From JBGPLH01 sp041486365 [NCBI: Thermodesulfobacteriota bacterium] (GTDB lineage Bacteria > JAUYMQ01), in contig JBGPLH010000025.1 in assembly GCA_041486365.1 (NCBI GenBank), forward strand, positions 1 to 18,339: DNA of 18,339 bases, written 5' to 3'. The notes beneath the pieces are model-generated. The model made no database searches. It saw only the letters and a program-made list of their open reading frames with translations, and had not been told where the DNA came from. Numbering within the stretch: the first letter of the stretch is position 1; every line of letters begins with the position of its first letter. The position numbers and the translations under genes are program-made. Of this stretch, positions 3,294 through 16,004 are shown piece after piece.

Positions 3294-3362
3294 CGGGAGG
3301 GCGAAGCTCCTGCTGAGCCCACCACCCGGCACACAGGGCTCGGCTGGAGCCTCGCCCTCCCG
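3294..3362. repeat. Inverted pair of the GGGAGGGCGAGG dispersed repeat
   Basis: The left copy (3294-3319) and right inverted copy (3337-3362) match at 23 of 26 positions and are separated by 17 bases, giving a long imperfect hairpin. The same 26-bp unit recurs near 12.8-12.95 kb and 15.9-16.0 kb. This pair lies inside an operon, between yggS and proC, where it could weaken read-through or protect mRNA ends. Confidence 0.8.
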
Positions 3363-3415
3363 AACCCTGCCATCCATCCGCCTGGCGGAACAAGAACGCG
3401 GACAGGGAGACCGGC

Positions 3416-4225
3416 ATGGAAGACTACCGCATCGGCTTCGTCGGGGGCGGCAACATGGCCGAGGCGCTGATCCGCGGCCTCCTTCAGGCGAACGTGATGC
3501 CCGCGGGGACGATCGTCGCGTCCGACGTCTCGGCCGAGCGCCGCTCCCACCTCGCCTCCACCTACGGGATCCGCGCCACCGAGAACAACCGCCAGGTGGC
3601 GGAGCTCGCGCCCATCGTCGTTCTCGCCGTGAAGCCGCAGGGGATGCGGGCGATCGTCTCGGAGCTGGCCGGCGTCCCGGCGGGGAAGCTCTTCATCTCG
3701 ATCGCCGCCGGCGTGAAGCTCTCCCAGCTCTCCGAGTGGCTCGGAGATGCGCGCCCGATCGTGCGGGTGATGCCCAACACGCCGGCGCTCGTGCTGGCCG
3801 GAATGAGCGTGCTCTGCCCCAACGCGGCCTGCGCCAAGGCCGACGTCGAGACGGCCCGGAGGATCTTCGCGGCCGTGGGGGACGCGGTCGTGCTCGAGCG
3901 CGAGGAACTGCTGGACGCGGTCACCGGCCTCTCCGGCTGCGGCCCGGGCTATGTCTTCGTGATCCTCGACGCGCTCACGGAAGGCGCGGTGAAGCTCGGC
4001 CTTCCTCGCGACCTCGCGCGACGGCTCTCCGTGCAGACGGTCCTGGGCGCGGCGAAGCTCGCGGCCGAGACCGGGCGGCACCCGGCCGAGCTGCGCGACA
4101 TGGTCGCCTCCCCCGGCGGCGCGACGCTTGCGGGCCTGGAGTGCCTCGAGCGCGGGAACCTGCGGGCGACCCTCATGGCCGCCGTGGAGGCCGCCACGCG
4201 GCGGTCCCGGGAGCTTTCTTCCTGA
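3416..4225 (+). CDS. proC: Pyrroline-5-carboxylate reductase
   Basis: Catalyses the last step of proline synthesis, the NAD(P)H-dependent reduction of 1-pyrroline-5-carboxylate. The 269-residue length is normal. The Rossmann domain opens with IGFVGGGNMAEAL (residues 6-18). AVKPQ lies at 71-75 and VMPNTP at 118-123. The C-terminal dimerisation/active-site signature is TGLSGCGPGYVF at 170-181, followed by DMVASPGGATLAGL at 228-241. The usual SGSGPAY is SGCGPGY here, a Cys and a Gly substitution that the fold should tolerate. The ATG at 3416 has an AGGGAG upstream. The stop TGA shares one base with the yggT ATG. Confidence 0.95.
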   Translation: MEDYRIGFVGGGNMAEALIRGLLQANVMPAGTIVASDVSAERRSHLASTYGIRATENNRQVAELAPIVVLAVKPQGMRAIVSELAGVPAGKLFISIAAGVKLSQLSEWLGDARPIVRVMPNTPALVLAGMSVLCPNAACAKADVETARRIFAAVGDAVVLEREELLDAVTGLSGCGPGYVFVILDALTEGAVKLGLPRDLARRLSVQTVLGAAKLAAETGRHPAELRDMVASPGGATLAGLECLERGNLRATLMAAVEAATRRSRELSS

Positions 4226-4536
4226 TGTTCCTCCTGGCCAATCTCCTGATCGCGGTCGCCACGGTGCTCGACGCGGCCCTGCAGATCTACCTCTGGATGG
4301 TGATCATCCGGGCGCTGCTTTCCTGGGTGAATCCGGACCCCCGCAACCCGATCGTCCGGTTCCTGAACGCGGCCACCGACCCGGTCCTCTGGCGGATCCG
4401 GCGCTGGCTCGGGCCCCGGATCCTCACGGCCATGGGGGGCCTGGATCTCTCGCCCATCGTCGTGATCCTGGCCATCTATTTCCTGCGGGCCTTCCTGGTG
4501 CAGTCCCTCCGGGATCTCGCCCTCCGGCTGGGATGA
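4225..4536 (+). CDS. yggT: YggT family membrane protein
   Basis: A small inner-membrane protein of the YggT/YlmG family, which has been connected to cell division and osmotic or ion homeostasis without a fixed biochemical role. The 103-residue product has an N-terminal hydrophobic helix (about 3-28), then the family block WMVIIRALLSWVNPDPRNP, then a TDPVLWRIRRWL segment and a second helix containing LDLSPIVVILAIYFLR. It starts on the ATG overlapping the proC stop by one base. Its position between proC and divIVA matches the conserved ylm/ygg neighbourhood of many bacteria. Confidence 0.93.
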   Translation: MFLLANLLIAVATVLDAALQIYLWMVIIRALLSWVNPDPRNPIVRFLNAATDPVLWRIRRWLGPRILTAMGGLDLSPIVVILAIYFLRAFLVQSLRDLALRLG

Positions 4537-4696
4537 TTCAACTTTCCCCCCCTGGCGCCGATACGTCTCGCGATGCCCGCGTACGGGCCGTCAGCAGATC
4601 CGCCCGGCCGTGACCCACGCGCATCGCACTCCATCCCATCGACGTATCCGGAAACCGGCAAGAGGGCGCTTTTGCGCTCGGGGGAAAAGACAAGAG

Positions 4697-5203
4697 ATGA
4701 AGCTCACGCCACTGGACGTGAAGAGCCAGACGTTCTCCACGCGCTGGAAGGGGCTAGACCCCGCCGAAGTCCAGGCGTTCCTCGAGGTGGTCACGAGCGA
4801 CCTCGAGGAGATCACCGCCGAGAACAACACGCTGAAGGACGAGATGAAGCGCCTGCGGAGCGACCTCGACGGTCATATGGATCGCGAGAAGACGCTGCGC
4901 GAGACCATGGTCACGGCCCAGCGCCTGGCGGAGGAGATCCAGCAGCACGCCGAGGAGAAGGCGAAGCTCCTCGGCGGCGAGGCGGAGGTCCGGGCGGAGA
5001 AGATCCTCGATGCCGCCCACCGCCGGGCCGCGAAAATCTCTGAAGACATCTCGGAGTTGAAGCGTCAGCGAATGAGCCTGGAGGCGGCCATCCGCGCCAC
5101 CATCCAAAGCCACCTCTCGATGCTCGACGGACTGCGAGAGGAAAACAAGGATCAGGACGAGCTGGATGAAAAGCTCAAATTCCTCCTCCGGAAAAACAAC
5201 TAG
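4697..5203 (+). CDS. divIVA: DivIVA-domain cell division/polarity protein
   Basis: DivIVA proteins are cytoplasmic coiled-coil scaffolds that bind curved membrane at poles and septa. The 168-residue product begins MKLTPLDVKSQTFSTRWKGL, the typical N-terminal membrane-targeting domain, followed by DPAEVQAFLE. From about residue 30 almost everything is a charged coiled coil (EEITAENNTLKDEMKRL, then Glu/Lys/Arg-rich heptads to about 150). The ATG at 4697 is chosen because the conserved domain starts immediately there; an upstream extension of 29 residues is Arg-rich and unlike the family. A 160-base gap separates it from yggT; I see nothing firm in that gap. The yggU-like gene follows after 10 bases. 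Confidence 0.9.
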   Translation: MKLTPLDVKSQTFSTRWKGLDPAEVQAFLEVVTSDLEEITAENNTLKDEMKRLRSDLDGHMDREKTLRETMVTAQRLAEEIQQHAEEKAKLLGGEAEVRAEKILDAAHRRAAKISEDISELKRQRMSLEAAIRATIQSHLSMLDGLREENKDQDELDEKLKFLLRKNN

Positions 5204-5213
5204 AGCGAGAACG

Positions 5214-5576
5214 ATGAACCAAACGCATCACCCGAGCGCCGCCCGGAAGGTCGAGGCGCATCCGAAACCCGCCCCCTCCAGAGCCCAGAAGCTGAAGATC
5301 GATCCGGTCGATGACGGCATCGCCTTCGAGGTGCACGTCGTCCCGCGCTCGGCGCGCAACGAGATCGACGGCATCCACGGCGATCGGTTACGCGTGCGCG
5401 TGAACGTCCCGCCCGTGGAAGGCGCCGCCAACCACGCCGTCTGCACGCTACTCGCCAAGATTTTCGGCGTCGCCCCCAGCCAGGTCTCGATCATCCGCGG
5501 CCTGGTGAGCCGGATGAAGCGGATCCATGTAGCGGGGATCGAGGAAGCGAGGGCGAGGGAGACGTTGGCGGTGTAG
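5214..5576 (+). CDS. yggU: DUF167 / YggU family protein
   Basis: A small protein of the DUF167 (YggU) family; function unknown. The 120-residue product has a 35-residue polar, Pro/Lys-rich N-terminal extension, then the domain: VHVVPRSARNEIDG, LRVRVNVPPVEGAANHAVC, and VSIIRGLVSRMKRIHV near the end. The PPVEGAAN block is the family hallmark. The ATG at 5214 follows the divIVA stop by 10 bases, so the two are probably co-transcribed. Linkage to yggS and yggT parallels the E. coli yggS-yggT-yggU order. A hairpin follows 33 bases after the stop. Confidence 0.9.
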   Translation: MNQTHHPSAARKVEAHPKPAPSRAQKLKIDPVDDGIAFEVHVVPRSARNEIDGIHGDRLRVRVNVPPVEGAANHAVCTLLAKIFGVAPSQVSIIRGLVSRMKRIHVAGIEEARARETLAV

Positions 5577-5609
5577 GGCGCGGATTTTCGATGTAGATGT
5601 AGATGAGCG

Positions 5610-5632
5610 AAGGGGAGCCGGGGGCTCCCCTT
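5610..5632. terminator. Hairpin terminator between convergent genes
   Basis: A perfect 10-bp stem (AAGGGGAGCC at 5610-5619, complement 5623-5632) with a GGG loop is followed by CTCGTCTTT. It lies between the end of the + operon and the end of the - strand gene, so it may serve both directions. Confidence 0.7.
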
Positions 5633-5726
5633 CTCGTCTTTGATCCCTGGCCCAGCGAAGCGCCTCCACCGCCGTGATCGATGGGAAGGCCATGGCGCGG
5701 CGAAGGCCGGTGATCCCAGCGCCGCT

Positions 5727-7121
5727 TCAGGGATCGAAGGGGCCGACGGAGAGGCCGGTGTTGAGGATCGACACTCCGCCGCCGACAAATGTCCCGAGCA
5801 TCAGGTTGGCGTCGGTAGCATCCGACAGACAGTCGTTGTTCAGGTCGCCCTTCACGTTGCACTGATACGCCGGGAAGCACCCGAGCGCGCCGTTGCTGTC
5901 GGCGCAGAAAACCTGGCCCGCGGGGCAAGAGCCGCTTCCGAGGAGATTCGCTTTGCAAAAATCCGTGGGGTCGTCGGGGCAGGGATCGATCCGGTCCTCA
6001 ACGCCGTCGCCGTCGAAATCGATCCGCTGGGTGGTGTAGGCGAATATCATGCTATCCACGGTCGCGTTCGCGAGCGGCCACGTGAGGCCGGGCGGGAGTT
6101 TCGAGGTTACGGTCAACATAATCAGGTTGCTCGCGTTTACGTTCTGTCCAATCGCCGCCGGGACGATGACGTTCTGGATGTAGCAGCCGGGCGGGTTGCA
6201 GCGGCCCGGATTCGCGAAATTGGCCATCTGGTTCATGTCGACGGAATACGTGCGGAAGATGACTTTCTGATCGGGTACGACGAAGTTGCCGCTTCCCGGC
6301 TGCAGGCCGTCCACACAATGATCCACGGTGAGACTCTGGTACGTGACACCGTTGCCGCAGACGCTGCTCGAGCCCGGACCCGCCCCGCCCGCGGCCAGGC
6401 TCACCTGCGCGTGACCGAAGGGAGCCAACCACTGGGTCATCCACAGGCTCACGCTCACGGGCTGCACCGCGGCGGACGCGCCCGTGTTGCGCAGCGCCTC
6501 CGCGACGTTCTCGTCCCGCCCCCGGCCCATCGGGGGGCAGTCGTTGCAGGTATACGGGCACTCGGCCAGAACGAAGCTCCCCGAAAGAAACGCGATCCCC
6601 TTCTGCGCCGCCGAGGTGCCGAAAGCCGGTGTGTGAATCACCAGATAGCTGTACTCGCCCGTGCCGTCCTGGTTTCCCGCCGGATGCCCGCCGTGACCCG
6701 CCCCGGGGACGACCGCGCTGTTGCATGCGATGGTCTTCCGGTTGCATTCGGCGCCGCCCCCCGCGTTGCTGGGGCCTTCTGCCGCCCCCGGCGCTAGCAG
6801 GAACCCCGGGGGCGTTCCCAAGGCGCACGGAAAGCTGGGGGCCAGCTCGCAGAGGTTTATCGTCGTGCCGGTCTGCGCGAGAATCCTGCCCAGCAGAACT
6901 TCGTCCGCATCGAAGAGGTTCGGCGAGCTGGCCTGGTTCGGCCACCTGAGCGCTACTGAAGACCCTTCCACGAGGGTCCAGGTGTAGGTCTTCGGGTTCG
7001 CGCAGGGAGCCTGCTGGCCGCGGGCTTCCCCTGCCGCCAGCGTGCCGAGAAGCGCCGCAGCGAGCATGGCCGCAAGCGCTTCCCCGAAAGTCCCATGTCT
7101 TATCGCAACGATGGAATCCAC
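5727..7121 (-). CDS. Secreted Cys-rich protein with Ca-loop and dockerin-like C-terminus
   Basis: I do not recognise a named family for the main body. The 464-residue product starts on GTG with a short charged segment, a hydrophobic stretch (LAAMLAAALLGTLAAG) and a likely signal cleavage near ARG-QQ (about 35-36), so it is probably exported. The body is rich in Gly, Ala, Asn and paired cysteines (for example CPYTCNDCPP), consistent with oxidised extracellular folding. Near the end there is a thrombospondin-3-like Ca loop, DFDGDGVEDRIDPCPDD (from about 368). At about 425 a single dockerin-like half-repeat, GDLNNDCLSDATDANLML, follows. Such ends are common in large secreted proteins of planctomycete, Eisenbacteria and related genomes. 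It is monocistronic, convergent with yggU and divergent from folD. Ligand and attachment partner are unknown. Confidence 0.8.
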   Translation of the reverse strand: MDSIVAIRHGTFGEALAAMLAAALLGTLAAGEARGQQAPCANPKTYTWTLVEGSSVALRWPNQASSPNLFDADEVLLGRILAQTGTTINLCELAPSFPCALGTPPGFLLAPGAAEGPSNAGGGAECNRKTIACNSAVVPGAGHGGHPAGNQDGTGEYSYLVIHTPAFGTSAAQKGIAFLSGSFVLAECPYTCNDCPPMGRGRDENVAEALRNTGASAAVQPVSVSLWMTQWLAPFGHAQVSLAAGGAGPGSSSVCGNGVTYQSLTVDHCVDGLQPGSGNFVVPDQKVIFRTYSVDMNQMANFANPGRCNPPGCYIQNVIVPAAIGQNVNASNLIMLTVTSKLPPGLTWPLANATVDSMIFAYTTQRIDFDGDGVEDRIDPCPDDPTDFCKANLLGSGSCPAGQVFCADSNGALGCFPAYQCNVKGDLNNDCLSDATDANLMLGTFVGGGVSILNTGLSVGPFDP

Positions 7122-7213
7122 GGCGTGACCCCTCTTCGCGCGCTCACCCCTTTTTCAGATTCCGCCGCTCCCCCCTGATTGTCAAACGCATTCCTCGACA
7201 AGCCGAAAGCCCC

Positions 7214-7243
7214 TTTACACCCTCCCCTTCCCCTCACTATATT
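7214..7243 (+). promoter_or_regulatory. Candidate promoter of the folD-gcv operon
   Basis: TTTACA (7214-7219) and TATATT (7238-7243) are separated by 18 bases, a good sigma70-like match in an otherwise GC-rich gap. They lie about 60 bases upstream of the folD ATG. Confidence 0.5.
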
Positions 7244-7304
7244 CGCCCTTCGGCCGCCCCTTCCCGCCGAACCGGTCCCTGAAAAATCGAGCCCGAGGCC
7301 ACTC

Positions 7305-8240
7305 ATGATCGACACACCGCCCGGCTCCGCCGTCGTGATCGACGGGAAGGCCATCGCCCGCGCCATCCGCGAGCGGGTGGCGGCCGACACGGCGCGGCTC
7401 ATCCGCGACAAGGGGATCACCCCCTGCCTCGCCGTCGTTCTCGTGGGAGAGGACCCTGCCAGCCGGATCTATGTCTCCAATAAAGGAAAGGCCGCCGCCG
7501 AGGCCGGGATCGCCACGCGCGATCATCGGCTCCCGGCCGAGACGACCCAGGCCGATCTCCTCGCGCTGGTCCGCGCGCTCAACGACGACCCGCTCGTCCA
7601 CGGCATCCTCGTGCAACTGCCGCTTCCGAACCCGATCGATGCCCGCGCGATCCTGGAGAGCGTGTCGCCCGACAAGGACGTGGACGGCTTCCACCCGGTG
7701 AACGTCGGCCTCCTGCACATGGGCCGCGCGCGCTTCGTCCCCTGCACGCCCAAGGGCGTGATCGAGATGCTGCGCTTCCATAAGATCGCTCTCTCGGGGA
7801 AGCGCGCCGTCGTCGTGGGCCGCTCGAACATCGTCGGGCGTCCCGTCGCGTCGCTGCTCGAGCAGGAGAACGCCACGGTCACGATCTGCCACTCGCGCAC
7901 GGCCGATCTGCCCGGCGAGGTGCGGGGCGCCGACATCGTCATCGCCGCAATCGGCAAGCCGGAGTTCATCCGCGGAGACTGGATCAAGCCCGGGGCGGTG
8001 GTAATCGACGTCGGGATCAACCGCGGGCCCGACGGCAGGCTCGTGGGTGACGTCGCCTACGCGGAGGCACTCCCGCGCGCCGGGCACATCACGCCGGTCC
8101 CCGGCGGCGTCGGGCCGATGACCATCGCGATGCTCCTCTCCAACACGGTCGAGGCGGCCGGGCGGGCCTCTTCCGGAGGTGCCGCGCCCGGCGGTTCCTC
8201 ACCGGCGGGTCGCTCGTCGGAAGGCGCGGCCCGACGATGA
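7305..8240 (+). CDS. folD: FolD bifunctional methylene-THF dehydrogenase/cyclohydrolase
   Basis: Converts 5,10-methylene-THF to 10-formyl-THF through the methenyl form, with NADP reduction, in the cytoplasm. The 311-residue product has the catalytic Tyr and Lys in YVSNK (Tyr56, Lys60), [30 protein letters not shown], the Rossmann motif [16 protein letters not shown], and the C-terminal [17 protein letters not shown] 7305 fits the family start. An upstream extension in frame would be Pro-rich, would lack homology, and would lie across the probable promoter. A 24-residue Ser/Gly/Ala tail extends past the usual C-terminus. The stop overlaps the gcvT start (ATGA), coupling the enzyme that consumes methylene-THF to the system that makes it. 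Confidence 0.96.
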
Positions 8241-9364
8241 ACATGACATCTCCCCGCCGCACCCCGCTCTACGACCGCCACGTCGCCCTCGGCGGCCGCA
8301 TGGTCGACTTCGCCGGCTGGGAGATGCCCGTTCAGTACAAGGGGATCATCGCCGAGCACCTTGCCTGCCGGGCCGCCGCGGCGATCTTCGACGTGAGCCA
8401 CATGGGCGAGGTGAAGATCCGCGGGCGCGACGCGCTGGCGAGCGTGCAGCGGATCGCCACGAACGACGCCTCGAAGCTCGTGGACGGCCGCGTGCAGTAC
8501 GCCGCCATGTGCAGACCGACCGGCGGTGTCGTGGACGACATCACCGTCTACCGGCGCGGGCCCGAGGACTACTGCTTCGTGGTCAACGCGAGCAACGCGG
8601 ACAAGGACGTCGCCTGGATCCGCGAGCACGCGACCGGCGATACGCGCGTGGAGGACGTGAGCGCCGCGACCGCGCTCATCGCGGTGCAGGGCCCGAGGGC
8701 CCCCGCGATCGTCCAGAGCGTGGCCGACCGCGAGATCCTCGATCTCCCGCGCTACTGGTTCCGCGAAGGGGCGGTGAAGACGCCCGCGGGAACCATCGCG
8801 GCCACCTTCTCGCGGACCGGCTACACGGGCGAGGACGGATTCGAAGTCGCCTGCCCCTGGGAGCGCGCCGGAGAGGTCTGGGACCGCCTGATGGAAGCCG
8901 GATCCGCTGACGGGATCGTGCCGGCGGGGCTCGGCGCCCGGGACACGCTGCGCCTGGAGGCAAAGATGTGCCTGTACGGACACGAGCTTTCGGAGGAGAC
9001 GACGCCGCTCGAGGCGGGGATCGGCTGGGCCGTCGCGCTCGACAGCCCCGCGAAGGGGGACTTCATCGGGCGCGAGGCGCTTCGCCGCCAGAAGGCCGAG
9101 GGTCTCTCGCGCCGGCTCGTCGGCTTCGAGGTCACCGGGGCGGGCATCGCGCGACAGGGCTACCCGATCCTCGTCGGCGGGAAACCCGCCGGGGTCGTGA
9201 CCAGCGGCACGAAGTCGCCCACCCTGGGCAAGCCGATCGGCCTGGGCTACGTTCCGGCTGGCAGCGCGAAGCCTGGGACGCTCATCGAAATCGAGATCCG
9301 GGGCAAGGCCGTCGCGGCCGTGATCGTGCCCACGCCGTTTTACAAACCCGCCAGGCCGGCTTGA
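8237..9364 (+). CDS. gcvT: Glycine cleavage system T protein (aminomethyltransferase)
   Basis: Transfers the aminomethyl carbon from lipoyl-GcvH to tetrahydrofolate, releasing ammonia and methylene-THF. The 375-residue length is normal. Visible family blocks are [41 protein letters not shown] with the catalytic-position Asp at 101, [31 protein letters not shown], and in the barrel domain [22 protein letters not shown] 8237 overlaps the folD stop by four bases; a second ATG two codons on is possible. It is followed by a 148-base leader before gcvH. Confidence 0.96.
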
Positions 9365-9407
9365 ACCTTCCGCCGCGCGCCGGTCCGTGATAGAAGCGTA
9401 GGTCGCT

Positions 9408-9490
9408 CCGCCCGGGTCGAGACATGCCGGACCCGGGCGGGGAACATCCCGTCGAAGACCCCCCGGGGCGCAACGCACCCCCACGCCCCG
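9408..9490 (+). promoter_or_regulatory. Two-hairpin leader upstream of gcvH
   Basis: An 11-bp perfect stem (CCGCCCGGGTC at 9408-9418, complement 9430-9440, 11-base loop) is followed by a 7-bp stem (CGGGGCG at 9464-9470, complement 9484-9490), which ends seven bases before the gcvH ribosome binding site. It could be an attenuator, an mRNA-processing site setting H-protein levels, or an incidental GC-rich pairing. I do not see the conserved cores of a glycine riboswitch. Confidence 0.4.
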
Positions 9491-9497
9491 CATTGAA

Positions 9498-9504
9498 GAA
9501 GGAG
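9498..9504 (+). promoter_or_regulatory. Shine-Dalgarno site fixing the gcvH GTG start
   Basis: AAGGAGG (9498-9504) lies eight bases before the GTG at 9513. It is the strongest ribosome binding site I noticed in the window and supports GTG over any other start. Confidence 0.75.
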
Positions 9505-9512
9505 GCCCCCGC

Positions 9513-9902
9513 GTGGAGTACCCCGATGATCTCAAGTACACGAAGGAGCACGAGTGGGCGCGCATGTCCGACGGCCGCATCACCGTGGGCATCACGGACT
9601 ACGCGCAGGACGCCCTGGGCGAGGTGGTGTTCCTCGAGCTTCCGGAGGTCGACACCGAGGTCTCGAAGGAGGACACCTTCGGCGTGATCGAGTCGGTGAA
9701 GGCGGCGAACGACCTCTTCGCGCCCGTGAGCGGGCGTGTCGCGGAGGTGAACAGCACGGTCGTCGATTCGCCGGAGATGGTGAACACCGACCCCTACGGC
9801 GAGGGATGGCTCATCGCGGTCGAGCCCTCGGATCTCGCGGAGCTCGACGAGCTGATGACCGCCAAGGAGTACGCCGAGTACGTCCGTTCCCAGAAGGAAT
9901 AG
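9513..9902 (+). CDS. gcvH: Glycine cleavage system H protein
   Basis: The lipoyl carrier that shuttles the aminomethyl group among the P, T and L proteins. The 129-residue product begins MEYPDDLKYTKEHEWAR, the usual H-protein start. GITDYAQDALGEVVFLELP follows at 26-44. The lipoylation site is in VIESVKAAND, with Lys63 as the modified residue; NTDPYGEGWL follows later. The GTG start has a near-ideal ribosome binding site. gcvPA starts seven bases after the stop. All key residues are present, so it should be functional. Confidence 0.97.
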   Translation: MEYPDDLKYTKEHEWARMSDGRITVGITDYAQDALGEVVFLELPEVDTEVSKEDTFGVIESVKAANDLFAPVSGRVAEVNSTVVDSPEMVNTDPYGEGWLIAVEPSDLAELDELMTAKEYAEYVRSQKE

Positions 9903-9909
9903 GCCCCGG

Positions 9910-11256
9910 ATGCCCCACCGCTATCTCCCGCACACGCCCGACGACCTGCGCAGGATGCTCGCGGCGGTCCATGCGTCAGACATCGACGCCCTCTTCGAGG
10001 CGATCCCCGAGGACCTGCGGCGCCGCGCGCACCTCGACCTTCCCGACGGGATGGGCGAGCACGCGCTGAAGGCGCATCTCCAGGATCTCGCCTCCGCCGT
10101 GCGGGTGCCCGAGCCCGAGGGAATGTTCCTCGGCGGCGGCGCATACAATCATTTTCAGCCGGGGGTCGTTGACTTCGTCATCTCGCGCTCGGAGTTCTAC
10201 ACCTCCTACACGCCCTACCAGCCCGAGGTCAGCCAGGGCACGCTCCAGGCGATCTTCGAGTACCAGACGCTCATCTGCCAGCTCACGGGGATGGAAGTCT
10301 CCAACGCCAGTCTCTACGACGGAGCATCGGGCCTCGCCGAGGCGCTGCTCCTCGCGCGGCGCGTGAAGAAGCGCCCGAAGATGCTCCTCGCCCGATCGAT
10401 CCACCCCGACTACCGCGCGGTGGCGCGTACGTACCTGTCGGGAAGCGACGCCGAGATCGTCGAGGTCCCCTTCACGAAAGCCGGCACGATCGATCGCGCG
10501 GCACTCGAGAAGGCGCTCGACACGGGCGTGGCCGCCGTCGCGGTGCAGAGCCCGAACGTCTTCGGCTGCGTGGAGGACCTGCGGGCGATCGGGGAGATGG
10601 CTCACCAGGCAGGCGCGCTGCTCGTCGCCGCGTGCACCGAGCCCATCTCCTACGGCGTGCTGCGCGACCCGGGGACACTCGGCGCGGACGTGGCGCTGGG
10701 CGACGGGCAGAGCCTCGGGCTCCCGCCCTCCTACGGCGGCCCCTGGTTCGGTTTCTTCGCGACGCGGCAGGCCTTCGTGCGGCAGCTCCCGGGACGGCTC
10801 GTGGGCCAGTCGCACGACGCGAACGGGCGGCGCGGCTACGTGCTCACGCTCGCCACCCGCGAGCAGCACATCCGCCGCGAGAAGGCGACGTCCAACATCT
10901 GCACGAACCAGTCGCTCTGCGCGCTGGCCGGCGCGGCGTTCCTCGCCACGCTCGGAAAGACCGGCTTCGCGGAGCTCGCGCGCCAGAACCTCGCCAAGGC
11001 CGAATACGCCAAGCGGGTGATCCGTGACGAGGCGGGGCTCGCGTTCCCCTTCTCCGCGCCGACCTTCAACGAGTTCGTGGTCGAGGTGAAGGATGATCCG
11101 GAGCGCGTGCTGGGGCGCCTCCGGGAAGAGGGCCTGCTCGGAGGGATCCCGCTGGGGCCGTGGTACCCGGAGCTCGAGCGCGCCATCCTGGTTTGCGTGA
11201 CGGAGATGAACCCAAAATCGGCGATCGATCGACTCGCGCGGGGGCTCAAGGCATGA
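9910..11256 (+). CDS. gcvPA: Glycine dehydrogenase (decarboxylating) subunit 1
   Basis: The N-terminal half of the two-subunit glycine decarboxylase. With GcvPB it decarboxylates glycine on PLP and passes the aminomethyl group to lipoyl-GcvH. The 448-residue length is typical for subunit 1. Family blocks include MPHRYLPHTPDD, FLGGGAYNHFQPGVVD, FYTSYTPYQPEVSQGTLQ, GMEVSNASLYDGASGLAEA, DGQSLGLPPSYGGPWFGFFA, GRLVGQSHDANGRRGYVLTL, and EQHIRREKATSNICTNQSL. The PLP lysine belongs to the other subunit. The stop overlaps the gcvPB ATG (ATGA), ensuring equal production of the partners. Confidence 0.97.
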   Translation: MPHRYLPHTPDDLRRMLAAVHASDIDALFEAIPEDLRRRAHLDLPDGMGEHALKAHLQDLASAVRVPEPEGMFLGGGAYNHFQPGVVDFVISRSEFYTSYTPYQPEVSQGTLQAIFEYQTLICQLTGMEVSNASLYDGASGLAEALLLARRVKKRPKMLLARSIHPDYRAVARTYLSGSDAEIVEVPFTKAGTIDRAALEKALDTGVAAVAVQSPNVFGCVEDLRAIGEMAHQAGALLVAACTEPISYGVLRDPGTLGADVALGDGQSLGLPPSYGGPWFGFFATRQAFVRQLPGRLVGQSHDANGRRGYVLTLATREQHIRREKATSNICTNQSLCALAGAAFLATLGKTGFAELARQNLAKAEYAKRVIRDEAGLAFPFSAPTFNEFVVEVKDDPERVLGRLREEGLLGGIPLGPWYPELERAILVCVTEMNPKSAIDRLARGLKA

Positions 11257-12725
11257 ACGTGAAGCCCGGCGCCACGCAACCGCTCGAGCCGCTGCTCTTC
11301 GAGAAGGGATCTCCGGGACGGGTGGGCTGGTCGCTACCGCCTGCGGACGTGCCGGACGTCGATCCGGATGCCATCTTCGGGAAGGGCGCCGCGCGGGGTC
11401 CGGTCGAAGGGCTGCCCGAGCTTTCGGAAGTGGACGTCGTGCGGCATTACACGCGGCTCTCACGGCTCAACTACGGCGTCGACGTCGGCATGTACCCGCT
11501 CGGGTCCTGCACGATGAAGTACAACCCGAAGCTCAACGAGTGGGCCGCGCGAATTCCGGCCTTCGCGCGATCGCACCCGCTCCAGCCCCCGGAAATCTCC
11601 CAGGGGCTCCTCGCCCTCATGCACGCGCTCGAACGGATCCTCTGCGAGGTGAGCGGCATGGCACGCGTGACGCTGCAACCCGCCGCCGGGGCGCAGGGTG
11701 AGCTGGCGGGCATGCTGATCGTCCGGGCCCATCACAAGGCGCACGGCAACCCGCGGCACAAGGTGCTCGTGCCGGACACGGCCCACGGGACGAACCCGGC
11801 CTCCTGCGCGCTCTGCGACTACGAGGTGGTGACGATCAAGAGCGGGCCCACGGGGCTGCTCGAGCCCGCGGCGGTGGCGGCCCACATGGACGAGGACGTC
11901 GCCGCCCTCATGCTCACCAATCCGAACACCTGCGGCCTGTTCGAGACGCATATCCGCGAGATCGCGGATATCGTCCACGCCAAGGGCGGGCTCGTGTACT
12001 ACGACGGCGCGAACCTGAACGCGCTCATGGGCGTGGCCAAGCCCGGACACATGGGCGTGGACGTCATGCACTTCAACCTGCACAAGACCTTCTCCACGCC
12101 CCACGGCGGCGGCGGGCCGGGCTCCGGGCCCGTCGGTGTCGTCGAGCCGCTGGCGCGCTACCTCCCCACGCCGATCGTGAACCTCCGCGACGGCCAGTAC
12201 GTCCTCGACGACGTGCCGGAATCGATCGGGAAGATGAAATCCTTCCACGGCCACGTCGGCATGCACATCCGCGCCTACGCCTATGCGCTCGCGCTGGGCG
12301 GCAAGGGCCTCGCACAATCCAGCCGTTACGCCGTGCTCAACGCGAACTACGTGCTCGAACGGCTGCGCGGGGCCTACCACGTCCCCTACGCCGGACGCGT
12401 GATGCACGAGTGCATCGTGACGGACAAGCGGCAAAACGATCACGGGGTGAAGACGCTCGACATCGCCAAGCGCCTGATGGACTACGGCTACCATCCGCCG
12501 ACCGTGTACTTCCCGCTCGTCGTGCCGGGCGCGCTCATGATCGAGCCGACGGAGAGCGAGAGCCTGGAGACGCTCGACGCGTTCGTGGACGCGATGCTCG
12601 CCATCGCCCGGGAGGCGGAGGAGGACCCGGAGCTGGTCACCGGCGCTCCGCACACGACGCCCGTCGCGCGGCTGGACGAGGTGGAGGCGGCGCGAAAGCC
12701 CATCCTCAGGTGGACTCCGGCCTGA
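11253..12725 (+). CDS. gcvPB: Glycine dehydrogenase (decarboxylating) subunit 2
   Basis: The PLP-bearing subunit of the split P protein. The 490-residue product has MYPLGSCTMKYNPKLNE, QPAAGAQGELAGML, DTAHGTNPASC, and the PLP-lysine block HFNLHKTFSTPHGGGGPGSG, with the Schiff-base lysine at 278. PTESESLETLDAF lies near the end. ATG 11253 is chosen from the four-base overlap with gcvPA. It is the last gene of the one-carbon operon; a hairpin and two repeat copies follow. No lipoamide dehydrogenase (L protein) is nearby, so the pathway probably shares a genomic lpd elsewhere. Confidence 0.97.
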   Translation: MNVKPGATQPLEPLLFEKGSPGRVGWSLPPADVPDVDPDAIFGKGAARGPVEGLPELSEVDVVRHYTRLSRLNYGVDVGMYPLGSCTMKYNPKLNEWAARIPAFARSHPLQPPEISQGLLALMHALERILCEVSGMARVTLQPAAGAQGELAGMLIVRAHHKAHGNPRHKVLVPDTAHGTNPASCALCDYEVVTIKSGPTGLLEPAAVAAHMDEDVAALMLTNPNTCGLFETHIREIADIVHAKGGLVYYDGANLNALMGVAKPGHMGVDVMHFNLHKTFSTPHGGGGPGSGPVGVVEPLARYLPTPIVNLRDGQYVLDDVPESIGKMKSFHGHVGMHIRAYAYALALGGKGLAQSSRYAVLNANYVLERLRGAYHVPYAGRVMHECIVTDKRQNDHGVKTLDIAKRLMDYGYHPPTVYFPLVVPGALMIEPTESESLETLDAFVDAMLAIAREAEEDPELVTGAPHTTPVARLDEVEAARKPILRWTPA

Positions 12726-12749
12726 GGGCGGGATCGTTATAAATGGAAG

Positions 12750-12773
12750 CGCCCCGGTCCCCTGGCCGGGGCG
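12750..12773 (+). terminator. Hairpin after gcvPB
   Basis: An 8-bp GC stem (CGCCCCGG at 12750-12757, complement 12766-12773) with an 8-base loop lies 24 bases after the gcvPB stop. Only TTCGCGTT follows, so the U-tract is weak; it is a probable but not canonical terminator. Confidence 0.6.
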
Positions 12774-12811
12774 TTCGCGTTGGCCTGAAGGCGCGACGAA
12801 CGGATACGACC

Positions 12812-12851
12812 TGGGAGGGCGAGGCTCCTGCCGAGCCGCCCGAAGGGCGGC
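12812..12851. repeat. GGGAGGGCGAGG dispersed repeat, copy with adjoining hairpin
   Basis: A full 26-bp copy lies at 12812-12837. Its last bases run into a 7-bp hairpin (GCCGCCC at 12835-12841, GAA loop, complement 12845-12851). A further small GGCGC/GCGCC hairpin lies between this copy and the next one. Confidence 0.8.
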
Positions 12852-12886
12852 GTTCCCACGGTGTCGGCGCGAAGCGCCCTTCCGCC

Positions 12887-12950
12887 TGGGAGGGCGAGGC
12901 TCCTGCCGAGCCTACGTCGCAGTAGGCTCGCGAGGACGCTCGCCCTCCCA
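12887..12950. repeat. Inverted pair of the GGGAGGGCGAGG dispersed repeat
   Basis: A forward copy (12887-12912) and an inverted copy (12925-12950) flank a loop whose ends (TAC 12913-12915, GTA 12922-12924) extend the stem. The arms match at 22 of 26 positions. The mismatches are two GC/CG dinucleotide swaps, so the right arm has diverged. Confidence 0.85.
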
Positions 12951-12982
12951 CAAGCCCGGCAGACCGGTGTGGGTAGGCAAGG

Positions 12983-13849
12983 TCAATAGATGATCTCGAA
13001 CCCGAACTGAAGCGTGTGGCGGGAGGTGAGGAGCCTCCGGGGAGGGGGGTCGAAGGGGAACACGCGGCGCGCGGCCTCGAGCGCGTCGCGGTCCAGCGCC
13101 GAATAGCCGCTCGTCCGGACCACGCGCGCGTCGTGAAGGGATCCGTCGGCGTTCACTTCGAGCGAGAGGATCGTGCGCGGGCGGCTCGGGAGACTCTCCG
13201 GGAAAGAAAGACCCAGCGTCACGTTGCTCGGCTGGAAGACCACGCCGAAGGACGTCTTGAAATCGAGGAAGTACTGCGACTCCTCGAAGGCGCGGGTGTT
13301 GAGGCGCGTGGCGGGCCCGCGCAACACGTCGTCGAGCGGCTCGTTCACGCCGCCGTTTCCCCGCCGCGCTTCCGCCGCCACCCGCGTGCGCAGCCTTGTG
13401 ATCTCCCGATCGCGCAGCTTCTCCTGCAGCCGCTGTGCCAGTTGCTTGTTCCGGAGCGCGTCGATCTCGGACTGAATCTGCTCCACCTCCGCCTGAAACC
13501 GCGCCTGCTCGGCGGTGGCCTGGGGGCGTGCCTGCGCCGCCGGCGGCGACGGAGCGCCGGGCGTGCCCAGGTTCACGGTTTCCCGCTCGACCCGGCTCCC
13601 CTGCTTCGCCAGGAGCTTCGCGTCCGGGTTCTCCTGCGGCACCGGTGGTGGGGGAGCATCCACCACGCGGCCCGTCTGCGGCGCCGCCACGCGCTGGGGG
13701 AGCGCGACCAGCTCGATCACGCGGGGAATGTCGGCCGGGCCGGGGAATCCCCGGAGCATCGGCACGACGGCGACGACCAGCGCATGGAGGAGAAACGAGA
13801 AGAGGATGAACGGAAGGATCGAGGGCGAGGGACGATCGGCGAGCGTCAT
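12983..13849 (-). CDS. TonB-like energy transducer with coiled coil
   Basis: An inner-membrane, periplasm-spanning protein of the TonB/TolA type, which would transmit proton-motive force from an ExbB/D-like motor to an outer-membrane partner. From the ATG at 13849 it has 288 residues: a single N-terminal membrane helix (about 9-30, SILPFILFSFLLHALVVAVV), a Pro stretch (PPPPVP), a coiled coil at about 111-162, and a TonB-C-like domain at about 225-288 (LSLEVNADGSLHDARVVRTSG, ALDRDALEAARRVFPFDPPP). The start is chosen because AAGGGAGGG (13856-13864) sits six bases upstream. A GTG at 13879 and an ATG at 13867 are alternatives that overlap or abut the upstream gene. It is probably co-transcribed with the similar protein upstream. 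Confidence 0.8.
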   Translation of the reverse strand: MTLADRPSPSILPFILFSFLLHALVVAVVPMLRGFPGPADIPRVIELVALPQRVAAPQTGRVVDAPPPPVPQENPDAKLLAKQGSRVERETVNLGTPGAPSPPAAQARPQATAEQARFQAEVEQIQSEIDALRNKQLAQRLQEKLRDREITRLRTRVAAEARRGNGGVNEPLDDVLRGPATRLNTRAFEESQYFLDFKTSFGVVFQPSNVTLGLSFPESLPSRPRTILSLEVNADGSLHDARVVRTSGYSALDRDALEAARRVFPFDPPPRRLLTSRHTLQFGFEIIY

Positions 13850-13868
13850 GTCCATCCCTCCCTTCATT

Positions 13869-15107
13869 TCATTCGCCACCGACGATGAAGGTGAACTCGA
13901 GCGTGAGGCTGTTCCGCGTGAGCCGATCGGGCACCGGCGGGAAGGGATATCCCAGCCGAACGGCTTTGAGTGCTTCCTGATCGAGGAAGTTGCTGCCGGA
14001 GCTGCGCGTGATGCGCGGCTCCCCGCCTTGGCCGCCGTCCTTGGCGATCGTGAATTTGATCTTGGTGGTGCCCGCGCCCGTCCTCGACGCCGCCTCGCCG
14101 ATCGCGGTCTGGGCGCTCTGACTGATCCCGCTCGTGCTTCCGAAATTCGCCGCCGTCTGATCGTACATGTCCTTCGCCGCCCGGATGAGCCGGATCGGAT
14201 CCCAGTTGAGCGCGATGCGCCGCTTCACCGCAAGCCAGTAGCCCGCGTTCTCGTCCTTGAGCGTGTCCATCGACATCGTCGCGTCGGTGGGCACGAGGTC
14301 GGGGTTGTAGGGATTGTTCTGCCCGCCGGCGCGCCCGCGCTCGAGCTGCGCGATGCGCTCCTCCGTGGGAAGAAGGTCGCGCAGACCGGAGCCCACCCCC
14401 GGGAGCCCCGGGCGTCCCGCGCCGGGGACCGCCGCCACGCGGGGCTTCGCCCGGCGCTGGAACACGCCGTCCTCCACGATCGGTTTGGAGACCTCGTCGC
14501 CCCGTTCTCCGGCGACGCCCGGCATGGTAGCGGACCCATCGCCTCCAGCCCCGGCCCGGCCTCCAGCTTCCATCCGCGCCTGCGCCTTCTGGGCCTCCTG
14601 GGCCTCCTGGGCCTCGGCGGCGCGCTCCTTCGTCTCGCGGAGGGTGGGCTTCGCTAGCGCGTCGGCCGATTTCCGGGACGTGGGCAGCCCCCGTGTATCA
14701 ATGGGTAGATCGCGTGCCCGCGCGGGTCGCGGGACGCGCTGGTTGTAGAGGGAGCGGAACCTCTGGTCGCGCGGCGCCTGCTCGACGGCGGGCCTGGGGA
14801 TCTCGACGACATCGCCCGGCGGCTGCTCGGGCGGCAGAGGCTCCTCGGCGACGGGGATGGGCTCGGCCTTCGCCTTCTCCGGTCTGGCTTGCGGCGGAGG
14901 GGGGATCGGCGCGGGCGCCGGAATCCTGACCGGAACCCGCGTGGCCGCCATCCGCCCGCGAGGGATTTCCACCAGCTCGATGGGCGCGGGCATCGAGGGG
15001 AGGCTCAGCTTCGAGAGCAGGGGGGAGAGGTAGAACAGGAACAAGAGGGCGTGCAGGGCGATGGAGATCGCCATGAAGAGTTGAAGGTGGTCATCGCGAT
15101 CGGTCAT
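13869..15107 (-). CDS. TonB/TolA-like energy transducer
   Basis: A second membrane-anchored transducer. The 412-residue product has an N-terminal membrane helix (LFMAISIALHALLFLFYLSP), IELVEIP just outside it, a long Pro/Ala/Glu-rich spacer, a short AQEAQEAQKAQ repeat, and a C-terminal domain from about 286 (YWLAVKRRIALNWDP). TTKIKFTIAKDGG, SSGSNFLDQEALKAVRLGYPFPPVPD and LEFTFIVGGE follow. Between the first helix and the first strand of that domain about 34 extra residues are inserted compared with a plain TonB-C domain. The ATG at 15107 is chosen over the TTG at 15122 because GGGGAG (15115-15120) lies seven bases upstream of it. No ExbB/ExbD or TonB-dependent receptor gene is in the window, so the partner is unknown. 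Confidence 0.8.
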   Translation of the reverse strand: MTDRDDHLQLFMAISIALHALLFLFYLSPLLSKLSLPSMPAPIELVEIPRGRMAATRVPVRIPAPAPIPPPPQARPEKAKAEPIPVAEEPLPPEQPPGDVVEIPRPAVEQAPRDQRFRSLYNQRVPRPARARDLPIDTRGLPTSRKSADALAKPTLRETKERAAEAQEAQEAQKAQARMEAGGRAGAGGDGSATMPGVAGERGDEVSKPIVEDGVFQRRAKPRVAAVPGAGRPGLPGVGSGLRDLLPTEERIAQLERGRAGGQNNPYNPDLVPTDATMSMDTLKDENAGYWLAVKRRIALNWDPIRLIRAAKDMYDQTAANFGSTSGISQSAQTAIGEAASRTGAGTTKIKFTIAKDGGQGGEPRITRSSGSNFLDQEALKAVRLGYPFPPVPDRLTRNSLTLEFTFIVGGE

Positions 15108-15122
15108 CTCCCCGCTCCCCAA

Positions 15123-15848
15123 ACGGGCAGATTATACTCAGAAAGCACAAGCGGGGCTCTTTCGAGCCCCGCTTGCTTCGAGCGCAGAAGCCGCCGTTCT
15201 CCTGCTGCTCGCAACCGGTCTCCCTCCATCCGGAAGAAAACCGGCATTGCCTTCCGGCCACTGGGGGTCGGGCCGGGGGCACACTTCCTATGACCTGAGT
15301 GCAATGACCTGCGAGTGAGACCCCCAATCGTTCGGTCGTGACCGGCCGGCTCTCCAGGCGCCGGTCCGGCTTCATTCAGGAGGCTGGACCCGGGAGTCGC
15401 GCTCTCCGCCGTTTTGCGCGATCCGAAATCGGCACGACCGTCCTTCCGTTCCCCGATGCCTTTAGAGGGCTCCGGGGGTCGGTCGGTCGTCGCGGGGGCC
15501 CGCCACACTTCTAGATCAGGCTCTCACCTGATCTCACTGGGGCCTGGCCAGCCGTCGGGTCCAACGCTCCTGGGCCCTGGATAGAGCAAGTGTCGTGCCA
15601 GTATCCGGAGGGGGATCCGGGAGAGGATCGCCACGGGAAAAACGCAGGTGGCGCCCGGGATTCCGGTCCGAGGCCCGGATCGGGGAATCCGGCGGAGTTT
15701 GGTGATTGTTACGCTCCCGCTGACGCCTTTGGATGCGCTTTGACCCGATTTGCGGCGTGGTTGCGCCAAAGCCCGATGTGGGGCGGGGGATAACAGGCTT
15801 CGAGAAAATGACAGGGCGTGCAATTCCCGGGCGGGCGCGGCGCCCGCG
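15123..15848. other. Gene-free structured region between TonB pair and tkt
   Basis: No convincing protein, tRNA, tmRNA, RNase P or SRP RNA could be recognised on either strand. The region holds a perfect 8-bp hairpin (AGATCAGG 15513-15520, complement 15527-15534), a long-range 8-bp complement (GGCACGAC 15431-15438 with 15592-15599), and a 14-bp-period direct repeat starting ATGACCTG (15290 and 15304). Two related blocks read GGGGGTCGG then CACACTTC (15261-15290 and 15472-15513). It may be an unrecognised RNA gene, the remnant of a mobile element, or plain spacer. Confidence 0.4.
15131..15175 (-). promoter_or_regulatory. Promoter -10 box with adjoining perfect palindrome
   Basis: On the minus strand a perfect TATAAT (15131-15136) lies just upstream of the TonB-like pair. 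The -35 zone is covered by a perfect 12-bp stem palindrome (CAAGCGGGGCTC at 15148-15159, complement 15164-15175, loop TTTC), and no TTGACA-like box is present. Either this is an operator for a dimeric regulator, or the palindrome is the terminator of a minus-strand transcript arriving from 15.2-15.8 kb (TGCTTTCTGAG follows it). Confidence 0.5.
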
Positions 15849-15875
15849 CAAAAAACAACGCGCCCGTAGGGCGCG
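15849..15875 (-). terminator. Rho-independent terminator of tkt
   Basis: A 7-bp GC stem (CGCGCCC at 15859-15865, complement 15869-15875, three-base loop) is followed on the minus strand by TTGTTTTTT. Its orientation and position, about 130 bases past the tkt stop, fit tkt; the transcript would include the tandem repeat array. Confidence 0.75.
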
Positions 15876-15895
15876 CGCGAAAATCCTTCGCTGGT

Positions 15896-15993
15896 TGGGA
15901 GGGCGAGGCCGGTATGATCTGGGAGGGCGAGGCCGGTATGATCCGGGAGGGCGAGGCCGGTATGATCTGGGAGGGCGAGGCTCCTGCCGAGCC
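15896..15993. repeat. Tandem 24-bp array ending in a full dispersed repeat
   Basis: Three 24-bp units (15896-15919, 15920-15943, 15944-15967) each carry GGGAGGGCGAGGCC then GGTATGATC, and differ only in the first base. They end in a complete 26-bp copy of the dispersed repeat (15968-15993). The array begins 11 bases past the tkt stop codon and looks like local expansion of the first half of the repeat. Confidence 0.9.
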
Positions 15994-16004
15994 GGATCCG
16001 AAGG

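What the first reader, a model, noticed from the sequence alone, without database searches (positions are those of the whole stretch)
3294..15993. One palindromic repeat family sits 3' of three unrelated housekeeping genes
A 26-bp unit (core GGGAGGGCGAGG, ending CCGAGCC) occurs 15 bases after yggS, about 85 bases after gcvPB and 11 bases after tkt, mostly as inverted pairs able to form long hairpins. The fixed placement after stop codons suggests a REP/BIME-like element with a role in mRNA 3' ends, or insertion tolerated only there. In one frame it reads GEAPAEP, which may explain spurious small proteins annotated in such genomes.
Basis: partly seen in the sequence, partly recalled or inferred. 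Interest (0 to 1): 0.6.

Follow-up and report, generated by a model that had tools for sequence, protein, structure and literature searches.

The report
REP hairpins with their own transposase
The repeat behind three ordinary metabolic genes is a small palindromic element of the REP kind; in two unrelated bacterial genomes the same repeat brackets a transposase gene that probably copies it around, but its recognition tag (GGAG) differs from the classical one (GTAG).

Summary
A 25-nt unit (KGGAG-GGC-GA-NNN-TCCN-N'N'N'-GA-GCC) follows yggS, gcvPB and tkt: two inverted doublets, a lone unit, and a 24-nt tandem of truncated units closed by a full one. It is a REP/REPIN family. It is multicopy in 1 of 146 genomes of one (probably myxobacterial) phylum (54 copies) and 6 of 199 Planctomycetota (6-94 copies); in a third phylum 7 of 235 have one weak hit each. 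Units picked blind to the upper stem keep it paired in 117 of 120, in five stem types. In two genomes a REP-associated tyrosine transposase (RAYT) lies between such units; one of them has a second RAYT, between perfect-stem variants. Five of the seven multicopy genomes showed no close RAYT. The family favours convergent and avoids divergent gaps, but in codirectional gaps is not clearly nearer the stop codon (14 of 26). So: probably mobile DNA tolerated behind genes; an mRNA 3'-end role is neither shown nor excluded. Unusual is the tag, GGAG instead of GT[AG]G. The window's own genome is not held, so its RAYT could not be sought. New variant of a known kind.

The parts
3295..3319 (+). REP unit, upper stem AGC/GCT, left arm of doublet 1, 16 nt after yggS
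3337..3361 (-). REP unit, upper stem GGC/GCC, right arm of doublet 1 (tags outside, 42 nt start to start)
12813..12837 (+). REP unit, single, 87 nt after gcvPB
12888..12912 (+). REP unit, upper stem GGC/GCC, left arm of doublet 2
12925..12949 (-). REP unit, upper stem GCG/CGC (compensated on both sides), right arm of doublet 2 (37 nt start to start)
15897..15968 (+). three truncated units (first 13 nt of the unit plus CGGTATGATCY) in 24-nt tandem
15969..15993 (+). full REP unit closing the tandem, 11 nt after the tkt stop
12750..12773 (.). GC-rich hairpin between the gcvPB stop and the REP units (context only; the scan lists it as terminator-like on the - strand alone)
   Evidence: sequence
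15858..15876 (-). terminator-like hairpin with TGTTTTTT tail, beyond the tkt REP array on the tkt strand (context only)

Best explanation
The repeats are REP units and REP doublets (REPINs) of a GGAG-tagged family moved by a RAYT (TnpA-REP). Each unit is a 5' GGAG tag at the foot of a short hairpin: lower stem GGC/GCC, a 2x2 mismatch (usually GA/GA), a 3-bp upper stem and a TCCN loop. Shown here: the upper stem by covariation; doublets with outward tags and a spacing typical of the genome in Planctomycetota; RAYT genes between such units in genomes of two phyla; preference for convergent and avoidance of divergent gaps. Inferred from homology to E. coli TnpA-REP: the RAYT binds the tagged hairpin in single-stranded DNA, cleaves beside it with its HUH/Tyr site and moves the doublet; lone units and the 24-nt array are decayed or slipped remnants. 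Their place behind genes is best read as insertion tolerated where no promoter or reading frame is broken; effects on mRNA 3' ends would be secondary.
For: Copy number and patchy spread: 54 copies in G033 and at most 1 in each of the other 145 genomes of its sample; 94, 23, 16, 13, 6 and 6 copies in six of 199 Planctomycetota genomes. Hairpin: 117 of 120 units chosen blind to the upper stem are fully paired, five stem types. Doublets: all 25 found within 200 nt in G238, G327, G312 and G218 have tags outside; start-to-start spacing 76-79 in G327 (6 of 6) and 43-47 in G312 (8 of 8). RAYT: those of G238 (L218) and G033 (L155), 51% identical, lie between units; both pass NCBIfam REP_Tyr_transpos (82.7 and 89.6 bits, cut-off 80), and the G033 one matches solved TnpA-REP 4er8 at 3.6e-14. 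Matches of the RAYT profile at E up to 1e-20 occur in 1 of 199 and 1 of 146 genomes, each time the genome with most REP copies in its sample (the profile was built from these two proteins). Context.
Against: Five of the six multicopy Planctomycetota genomes (G218, G312, G327, G272, G243) gave no close RAYT, so in most hosts seen the mobiliser is lost, missing from the assembly, or another RAYT. The window's genome is not held, so no RAYT and no copy number were shown for it. No empty site was seen and no orthologous site compared; of 57 other genomes drawn as relatives of G033 none carries the family in numbers. Tag GGAG is not the GTAG/GTGG of described REPs. G033 has more inward (7) than outward (4) pairs and loose spacing, 38-149. 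In G238 the units beside the RAYT face inward. The six copies in G243 all carry 2-3 mismatches and may be another family (not fetched).
Confidence: 0.9

Rival explanations
1. The units are kept by selection as RNA elements at mRNA 3' ends (stabilisers against 3' exonucleases, or bidirectional stops), and mobility is incidental.
For: Convergent gaps are strongly enriched (20 against 6.5 expected, 0 of 5000 draws reach it); both window doublets make long hairpins; the literature argues that many REPs are transcribed (PMC3733652, abstract, one section and passages seen). At tkt the units lie between the stop and a terminator-like hairpin.
Against: No T-run follows the window units (read). In codirectional gaps the element is not clearly nearer the 3' end (14 of 26). 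The 80 gcvPB loci lack the unit (0 of 80 for an exact 16-mer and a 14-mer), though these are distant relatives (at most 64% identity) and whole-genome searches of 23 of them found the family in none beyond one weak hit, so this is weak. Avoidance of divergent gaps explains the bias without a function.
Confidence: 0.18
2. The likeness between genomes is chance, convergence of GC-rich palindromes, or contamination of metagenome assemblies, rather than one family.
For: Several source genomes are in hundreds of contigs; single hits with 3 mismatches occur in many genomes.
Against: Exact 25-mers stand on 21 listed contigs of G033; G272 is one 6.8-Mb contig and holds six copies, none exact; the reversed-pattern control gives at most 2 per genome and none; the RAYTs between the units are 51% identical across phyla.
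Confidence: 0.04
3. The units are ends or remnants of another kind of element (an IS200/IS605 MITE or some other palindromic repeat), not REPs.
For: A doublet with a gene or a spacer inside resembles an IS and its MITE; RAYTs belong to the same HUH superfamily.
Against: The bracketed G033 protein passes the REP_Tyr_transpos cut-off and scores 15.3 bits against a cut-off of 55 for IS200/IS605; the G238 protein lists only REP_Tyr_transpos. No Rfam family reaches its gathering score in the window.
Confidence: 0.04

Closest known systems
E. coli REP (y/z) with TnpA-REP (RayT), group 2 / subclass 2.2
   Same: Tag at the foot of an imperfect hairpin with a 2x2 mismatch between lower and upper stem: the control 65 nt behind K-12 rayT reads GTAG-GCCGGAT-AA-GGC-GTTTAT-GCC-GC-ATCCGGC (divided by eye; the simple scan also gave one other GTAG match farther off). 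A G238 arm has the same AA/GC mismatch and the same GGC/GCC upper stem. RAYT 30% identical; HUH, W-Q, R and Tyr/NPV positions shared.
   Different: Tag GGAG, not GTAG; lower stem 3 bp or less instead of 7; usual mismatch GA/GA; the RAYTs lack most of the E. coli C-terminal tail. PMC8266576 (passages) says that the E. coli tag tolerates no substitution.
REPINs of Pseudomonas (PMC3116915, abstract and passages seen)
   Same: Inverted doublets with a typical spacing; singlets read as remnants; each RAYT beside its own REP type.
   Different: The arms of a doublet are of two types in 6 of 6 (G327) and 8 of 8 (G312), though shuffled arms reach that in 337 and 270 of 5000. The two RAYT copies of one genome sit between a mismatched and a perfect hairpin.
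GTAG- and CGTC-tagged REP super-families (PMC3733652, abstract, one section and passages seen)
   Same: Spread over distant phyla including Planctomycetes; preference for convergent and unidirectional gaps; HH and TT dimers.
   Different: Neither tag. Figure 1 with the family sequences is not held, so I could not compare its 28 families one by one.

Membership tests
REP (repetitive extragenic palindrome) | many copies of a 20-40 nt palindromic unit per genome | tested here: met
   6 to 94 copies in seven genomes (G243's six with 2-3 mismatches). For the window's own genome not testable; 9 whole or truncated copies in 18 kb
REP (repetitive extragenic palindrome) | mostly extragenic | tested here: met
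   12 of 69 elements in predicted genes where 80-90% of the DNA is coding; 6 of the 12 are in G312
REP (repetitive extragenic palindrome) | conserved hairpin with compensatory changes | tested here: met
   117 of 120 units paired in the upper stem, five stem types. Energy of a single GA/GA unit does not beat shuffles
GTAG-tagged REP | GTAG or GTGG tetranucleotide 5' of the hairpin | tested here: not met
   positions 2-5 are G 84, G 85, A 85, G 82 of 91 (overlapping loci counted more than once); one unit with GTAG there (L091)
REPIN | inverted doublets as the repeated unit, with conserved spacing | tested here: met
   G327, G312, G218 and 4 of 7 in G238; not so in G033 (spacing 38-149, 7 inward and 4 outward)
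REPtron (RAYT with flanking REPs) | RAYT gene flanked by the same REP | tested here: met
   L218 and L155; L236 with a variant. Not found in five other multicopy genomes
REPtron (RAYT with flanking REPs) | RAYT binds and cleaves the REP as single strand | not testable with these tools
   needs protein
REPtron in the window's organism | RAYT present in that genome | not testable with these tools
   genome not held

The most novel reading that the evidence does not exclude
A lineage of RAYT-REP systems has changed its tag from GTAG to GGAG, kept the E. coli-like hairpin plan, and spread between at least two phyla (and to the window's lineage). Within one genome two RAYTs, 77% identical, have parted company over the mismatch: one sits between GA/GA hairpins, the other between perfect ones. 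That would be a natural switch between the two recognition modes known from group 2 and group 3 RAYTs.
Probability: 0.4. Interest if true: 0.55.

Novelty: new variant of a known kind. Interest (0 to 1): 0.42.

Why it matters
RAYTs are thought to be domesticated transposases, and the best studied one reads a fixed tag, GTAG. A family with a different tag, in phyla where REPs are little studied, gives close pairs of enzyme and substrate with which tag reading and mismatch reading can be tested. It also offers a source for spurious small ORFs (REGEAPAEP) in GC-rich genomes.

Tried and rejected
A tree places the window loosely among deltaproteobacterial or myxobacterial rows and one acidobacterial row, on a branch without firm support. 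I make no claim on its phylum. None of these 80 loci holds the exact 16-mer or 14-mer of the unit; a looser structural motif matches 3 times in their 1.45 Mb, which I took for chance.

An IS200-type TnpA near a weak unit (L124, G238) was dropped: the two are about 700 nt apart. The G312 RAYT in L260 lies about 1.2 kb from a unit and was not counted. Of the 59 Y1_Tnp hits the surroundings of 50 were scanned, and further RAYT loci. RAYT relatives in viral contigs: none confirmed. The gcvPB doublet region in plasmids: no match. The RAYT in plasmids: 16 records, all under 60% identity.

Alternative hairpin GGCTC/GAGCC on the same letters: rejected by eye, because stem types GCC/GGC and GCG/CGC break it and keep the REP hairpin (types). 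The folding energy of a single GA/GA unit does not beat shuffles (z -0.2 to -0.4); the perfect-stem variant does (z -3.8). Shuffling the eight distinct stem types gives 12 of 2000 shuffles at or above the observed 5 paired types, a small test.

A CT dinucleotide before the tag (a cleavage site in E. coli, PMC8266576, passages) is common in G033 (18 of 42) and the window (3 of 6) but not elsewhere: 3 of 13 in G327, 1 of 18 in G312, 0 of 24 in G238, 0 of 10 in G218, 0 of 5 in G272, 0 of 20 in viral contigs. Not used as evidence. Two-type arms: 6 of 6 and 8 of 8 in G327 and G312, 8 of 11 in G033, 4 of 7 in G238, 2 of 4 in G218, 3 of 5 in viral contigs, 2 of 2 in the window; shuffles reach these in 337, 270, 672, 2775, 4270, 4760 and 3327 of 5000. 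Not used as evidence.

The first gene caller chose antisense frames in GC-rich DNA and was replaced. The first, looser element set (22 convergent, 26 codirectional, 5 divergent; 14 of 67 in gene) holds some chance matches; the stricter set is the one cited for enrichment, while 14 of 26 comes. Regions were taken around copies that the searches listed first, not around all copies; G243 and G200 copies were not fetched. In one search, 8 of 69 elements (locus or contig edges, or gaps under 30 nt) are left out of the enrichment.

On re-checking, the argument from terminators was weakened: the hairpin at 12750 is listed on the - strand only, and such hairpins are at chance level. The mRNA rival was therefore raised from 0.15 to 0.18.
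Full report
What is there. The window holds nine copies, whole or truncated, of one repeat: 3295(+), 3337(-), 12813(+), 12888(+), 12925(-), 15897, 15921, 15945 and 15969(+). The core 12-mer is found 10 times with at most one mismatch, against 0.71 expected; 0 of 200 shuffles reach that. The gene map comes from protein families and a hexamer gene caller: maf, yggS, proC, yggT, divIVA, yggU, folD, gcvT, gcvH, gcvPA, gcvPB on the + strand; two proteins with a TonB C-terminal domain and tkt on the - strand; two called genes without a family. The repeats lie between yggS and proC (codirectional), between gcvPB and a TonB-like gene (convergent), and behind tkt in an 0.9-kb gap (codirectional).

The unit. 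Relatives in other genomes let the unit be read as a structure: KGGAG tag, lower stem GGC/GCC, 2x2 mismatch GA/GA, upper stem of three pairs, TCCN loop. Units picked by the other positions only, blind to the upper stem, are fully Watson-Crick paired there in 117 of 120 (deduplicated by context): GGC/GCC 85, AGC/GCT 15, GCC/GGC 12, CGC/GCG 4, GCG/CGC 1; the three others read GCC/GCC, GGC/GCT and GGC/ACC. The window holds three of the paired types. Tag letters at positions 2-5, in units picked by the core alone, are G 84, G 85, A 85, G 82 of 91 (some loci overlap, so some units count twice). The last base of the lower stem varies (C 66, A 21, T 4 of 91), so the lower stem is shorter in G238 and G218.

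Where it occurs. Searches with the 25-mer and up to 3 mismatches: 1 of 23 gcvPB-relative genomes with one 3-mismatch hit; 5 of 146 genomes in the phylum of G010, of which G033 has 25 + 29 copies and four have one copy with 3 mismatches; 13 of 199 in the phylum of the Brocadiales genome G021 (Planctomycetota), with G238 94, G218 23, G312 16, G327 13, G272 6, G243 6, G200 3 and six with one; 7 of 235 in the phylum of G002, each one 3-mismatch hit. The six G243 copies all carry 2-3 mismatches and most of them an unpaired upper stem, so they may be another family. The reversed-pattern control gives at most 2 per genome and none. Of 58 genomes drawn as relatives of G033 (itself included), three others have four one-mismatch hits in all to a looser pattern, against five in the control. 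Ten IMG/VR contigs hold the first 19 bases exactly. So the family is patchy: absent from most genomes searched, abundant in a few of different phyla.

The transposase. A search for Y1_Tnp (PF01797) in the repeat-bearing genomes gave many hits. Scanning the loci around most of them for the unit left one clear case: L218 in G238, whose RAYT (2289-2750) lies between a unit at 2076(-) and one at 2805(+). Its relative in G033 (L155:8359-8820, 51% identical) had been missed by the Pfam model (E 0.0044). It lies between a unit with an internal duplication at 8320(+), 3 nt before its ATG, and a unit at 8830(-), 9 nt after its stop, with two more behind. Both proteins pass NCBIfam's REP_Tyr_transpos, and the G033 protein matches the solved E. 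coli TnpA-REP 4er8 at E 3.6e-14. A second G033 RAYT (L236:1495-1959, 77% identical to the first) lies between two units in which GA/GA has become TC/GA, so that the stem is perfect. That variant, as an exact 25-mer, was found in no other of the 288 loci then fetched; I did not search the rest of G033 for it. At E up to 1e-20 the RAYT profile matches in 1 of 199 and 1 of 146 genomes, each the richest in REPs of its sample; the profile was built from these two proteins, and in some genomes only part of the first-look candidates was scored. Against this: G218, G312, G327, G272 and G243 have the repeat but no close RAYT; at E up to 1e-4 G312, G272 and G243 have distant ones and G218 and G327 none. 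The five other held genomes of G238's class, G218 among them, gave no second case.

Doublets. In G327, G312, G238 and G218 every doublet found within 200 nt (25 of 25) has its tags outside, with a start-to-start spacing typical of the genome: 76-79, 43-47, 68-70 (four of seven; the other three 142-169) and 34 or 42. G327's spacers are alike between copies (read). G033 is looser: 7 inward and 4 outward pairs, 38-149 apart. The window's doublets are outward, 42 and 37 apart. In G033 both RAYTs stand between outward units, like a doublet with a gene for a spacer; I infer that doublets are the gene-less form. In G238 the units beside the RAYT face inward, which does not fit that simple picture.

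Place relative to genes. In six genomes, 69 elements: 12 in predicted genes, 8 at edges or in very short gaps, 49 in intergenic gaps: 20 convergent, 25 codirectional, 4 divergent. Draws from the same gaps weighted by length give 6.5, 26.4 and 16.1; none of 5000 draws reaches the convergent or falls to the divergent count. Elements are treated as independent, and gene calls are my own. In codirectional gaps (looser set) 14 of 26 lie nearer the 3' end. So there is a bias towards gene ends and away from promoters, of the kind reported for other REPs (PMC3733652, abstract and passages), but not a fixed distance. In the window a terminator-like hairpin lies beyond the REPs on the tkt strand, and a hairpin listed on the - strand only lies between gcvPB and its REPs; the scan finds 8 such sites against 7.5 expected by chance, so little can be built on them.

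Comparison. The E. coli control behind rayT reads GTAG-GCCGGAT-AA-GGC-loop-GCC-GC-ATCCGGC (divided by eye). A G238 arm reads GGC-AA-GGC-TCCT-GCC-GC-GCC behind its tag: same mismatch, same upper stem. The RAYTs share the HUH motif, the Q and R of the tag-contact region with the W beside them, whose role the paper calls unclear (PMC6006769, passages), and the Tyr/NPV region, but lack most of the C-terminal tail that is said to contact the last two tag bases (PMC8266576, passages). The same paper says that E. coli's GTAG tolerates no substitution and that restoring a regular stem eliminated activity, though its SELEX selected the mismatch bases only moderately (passages); group 3 REPs are generally perfect. 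One survey looked for REPs with GT[AG]G only (PMC6006769, passages), so a GGAG family could be overlooked. Searches of the held library: the unit's 12-mer stands in three papers on unrelated subjects, its peptide readings in none; further strings gave 34 papers through the short DNA strings, of which the 20 listed are on unrelated subjects by title; no paper joins REPtron or TnpAREP with GGAG or 'REP-associated tyrosine transposase' with Myxococc-. The figure of family sequences in PMC3733652 is not held, so I cannot say that the family is undescribed.

Verdict. Real, ordinary in kind, and somewhat unusual in its tag and in its two RAYT-hairpin pairings. How it moves is inferred from homology; that it moves at all rests on copy number, doublet structure and bracketed RAYTs, not on an observed empty site.

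Noticed in passing
window 15122-16005: An 0.9-kb gap without a called gene between the TonB-like gene and tkt; only its tkt end is explained by REPs and a terminator-like hairpin.
   Followed up: no
window 28-1425 (+) and 5727-7121 (-): Two long called genes without a Pfam family at E up to 0.001.
   Followed up: partly
window 12983-15122 (-): Two neighbouring genes for proteins with a TonB C-terminal domain.
   Followed up: no
L236:1466-1989: Second RAYT of G033 between perfect-stem variants of the unit; the exact variant is in no other fetched locus.
   Followed up: partly
L168:7795-8010: Four GCC/GGC units in tandem, 63-64 nt apart, in G033.
   Followed up: no
L206:8157-8563: Two doublets inside one predicted gene of G312; half of the in-gene elements (6 of 12) come from this genome. 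May be a gene-calling error.
   Followed up: no
L090, L093, L097; L098, L099: IMG/VR 'viral' contigs that share a REP with its flanks, within each of the two sets; such contigs may hold host DNA.
   Followed up: no
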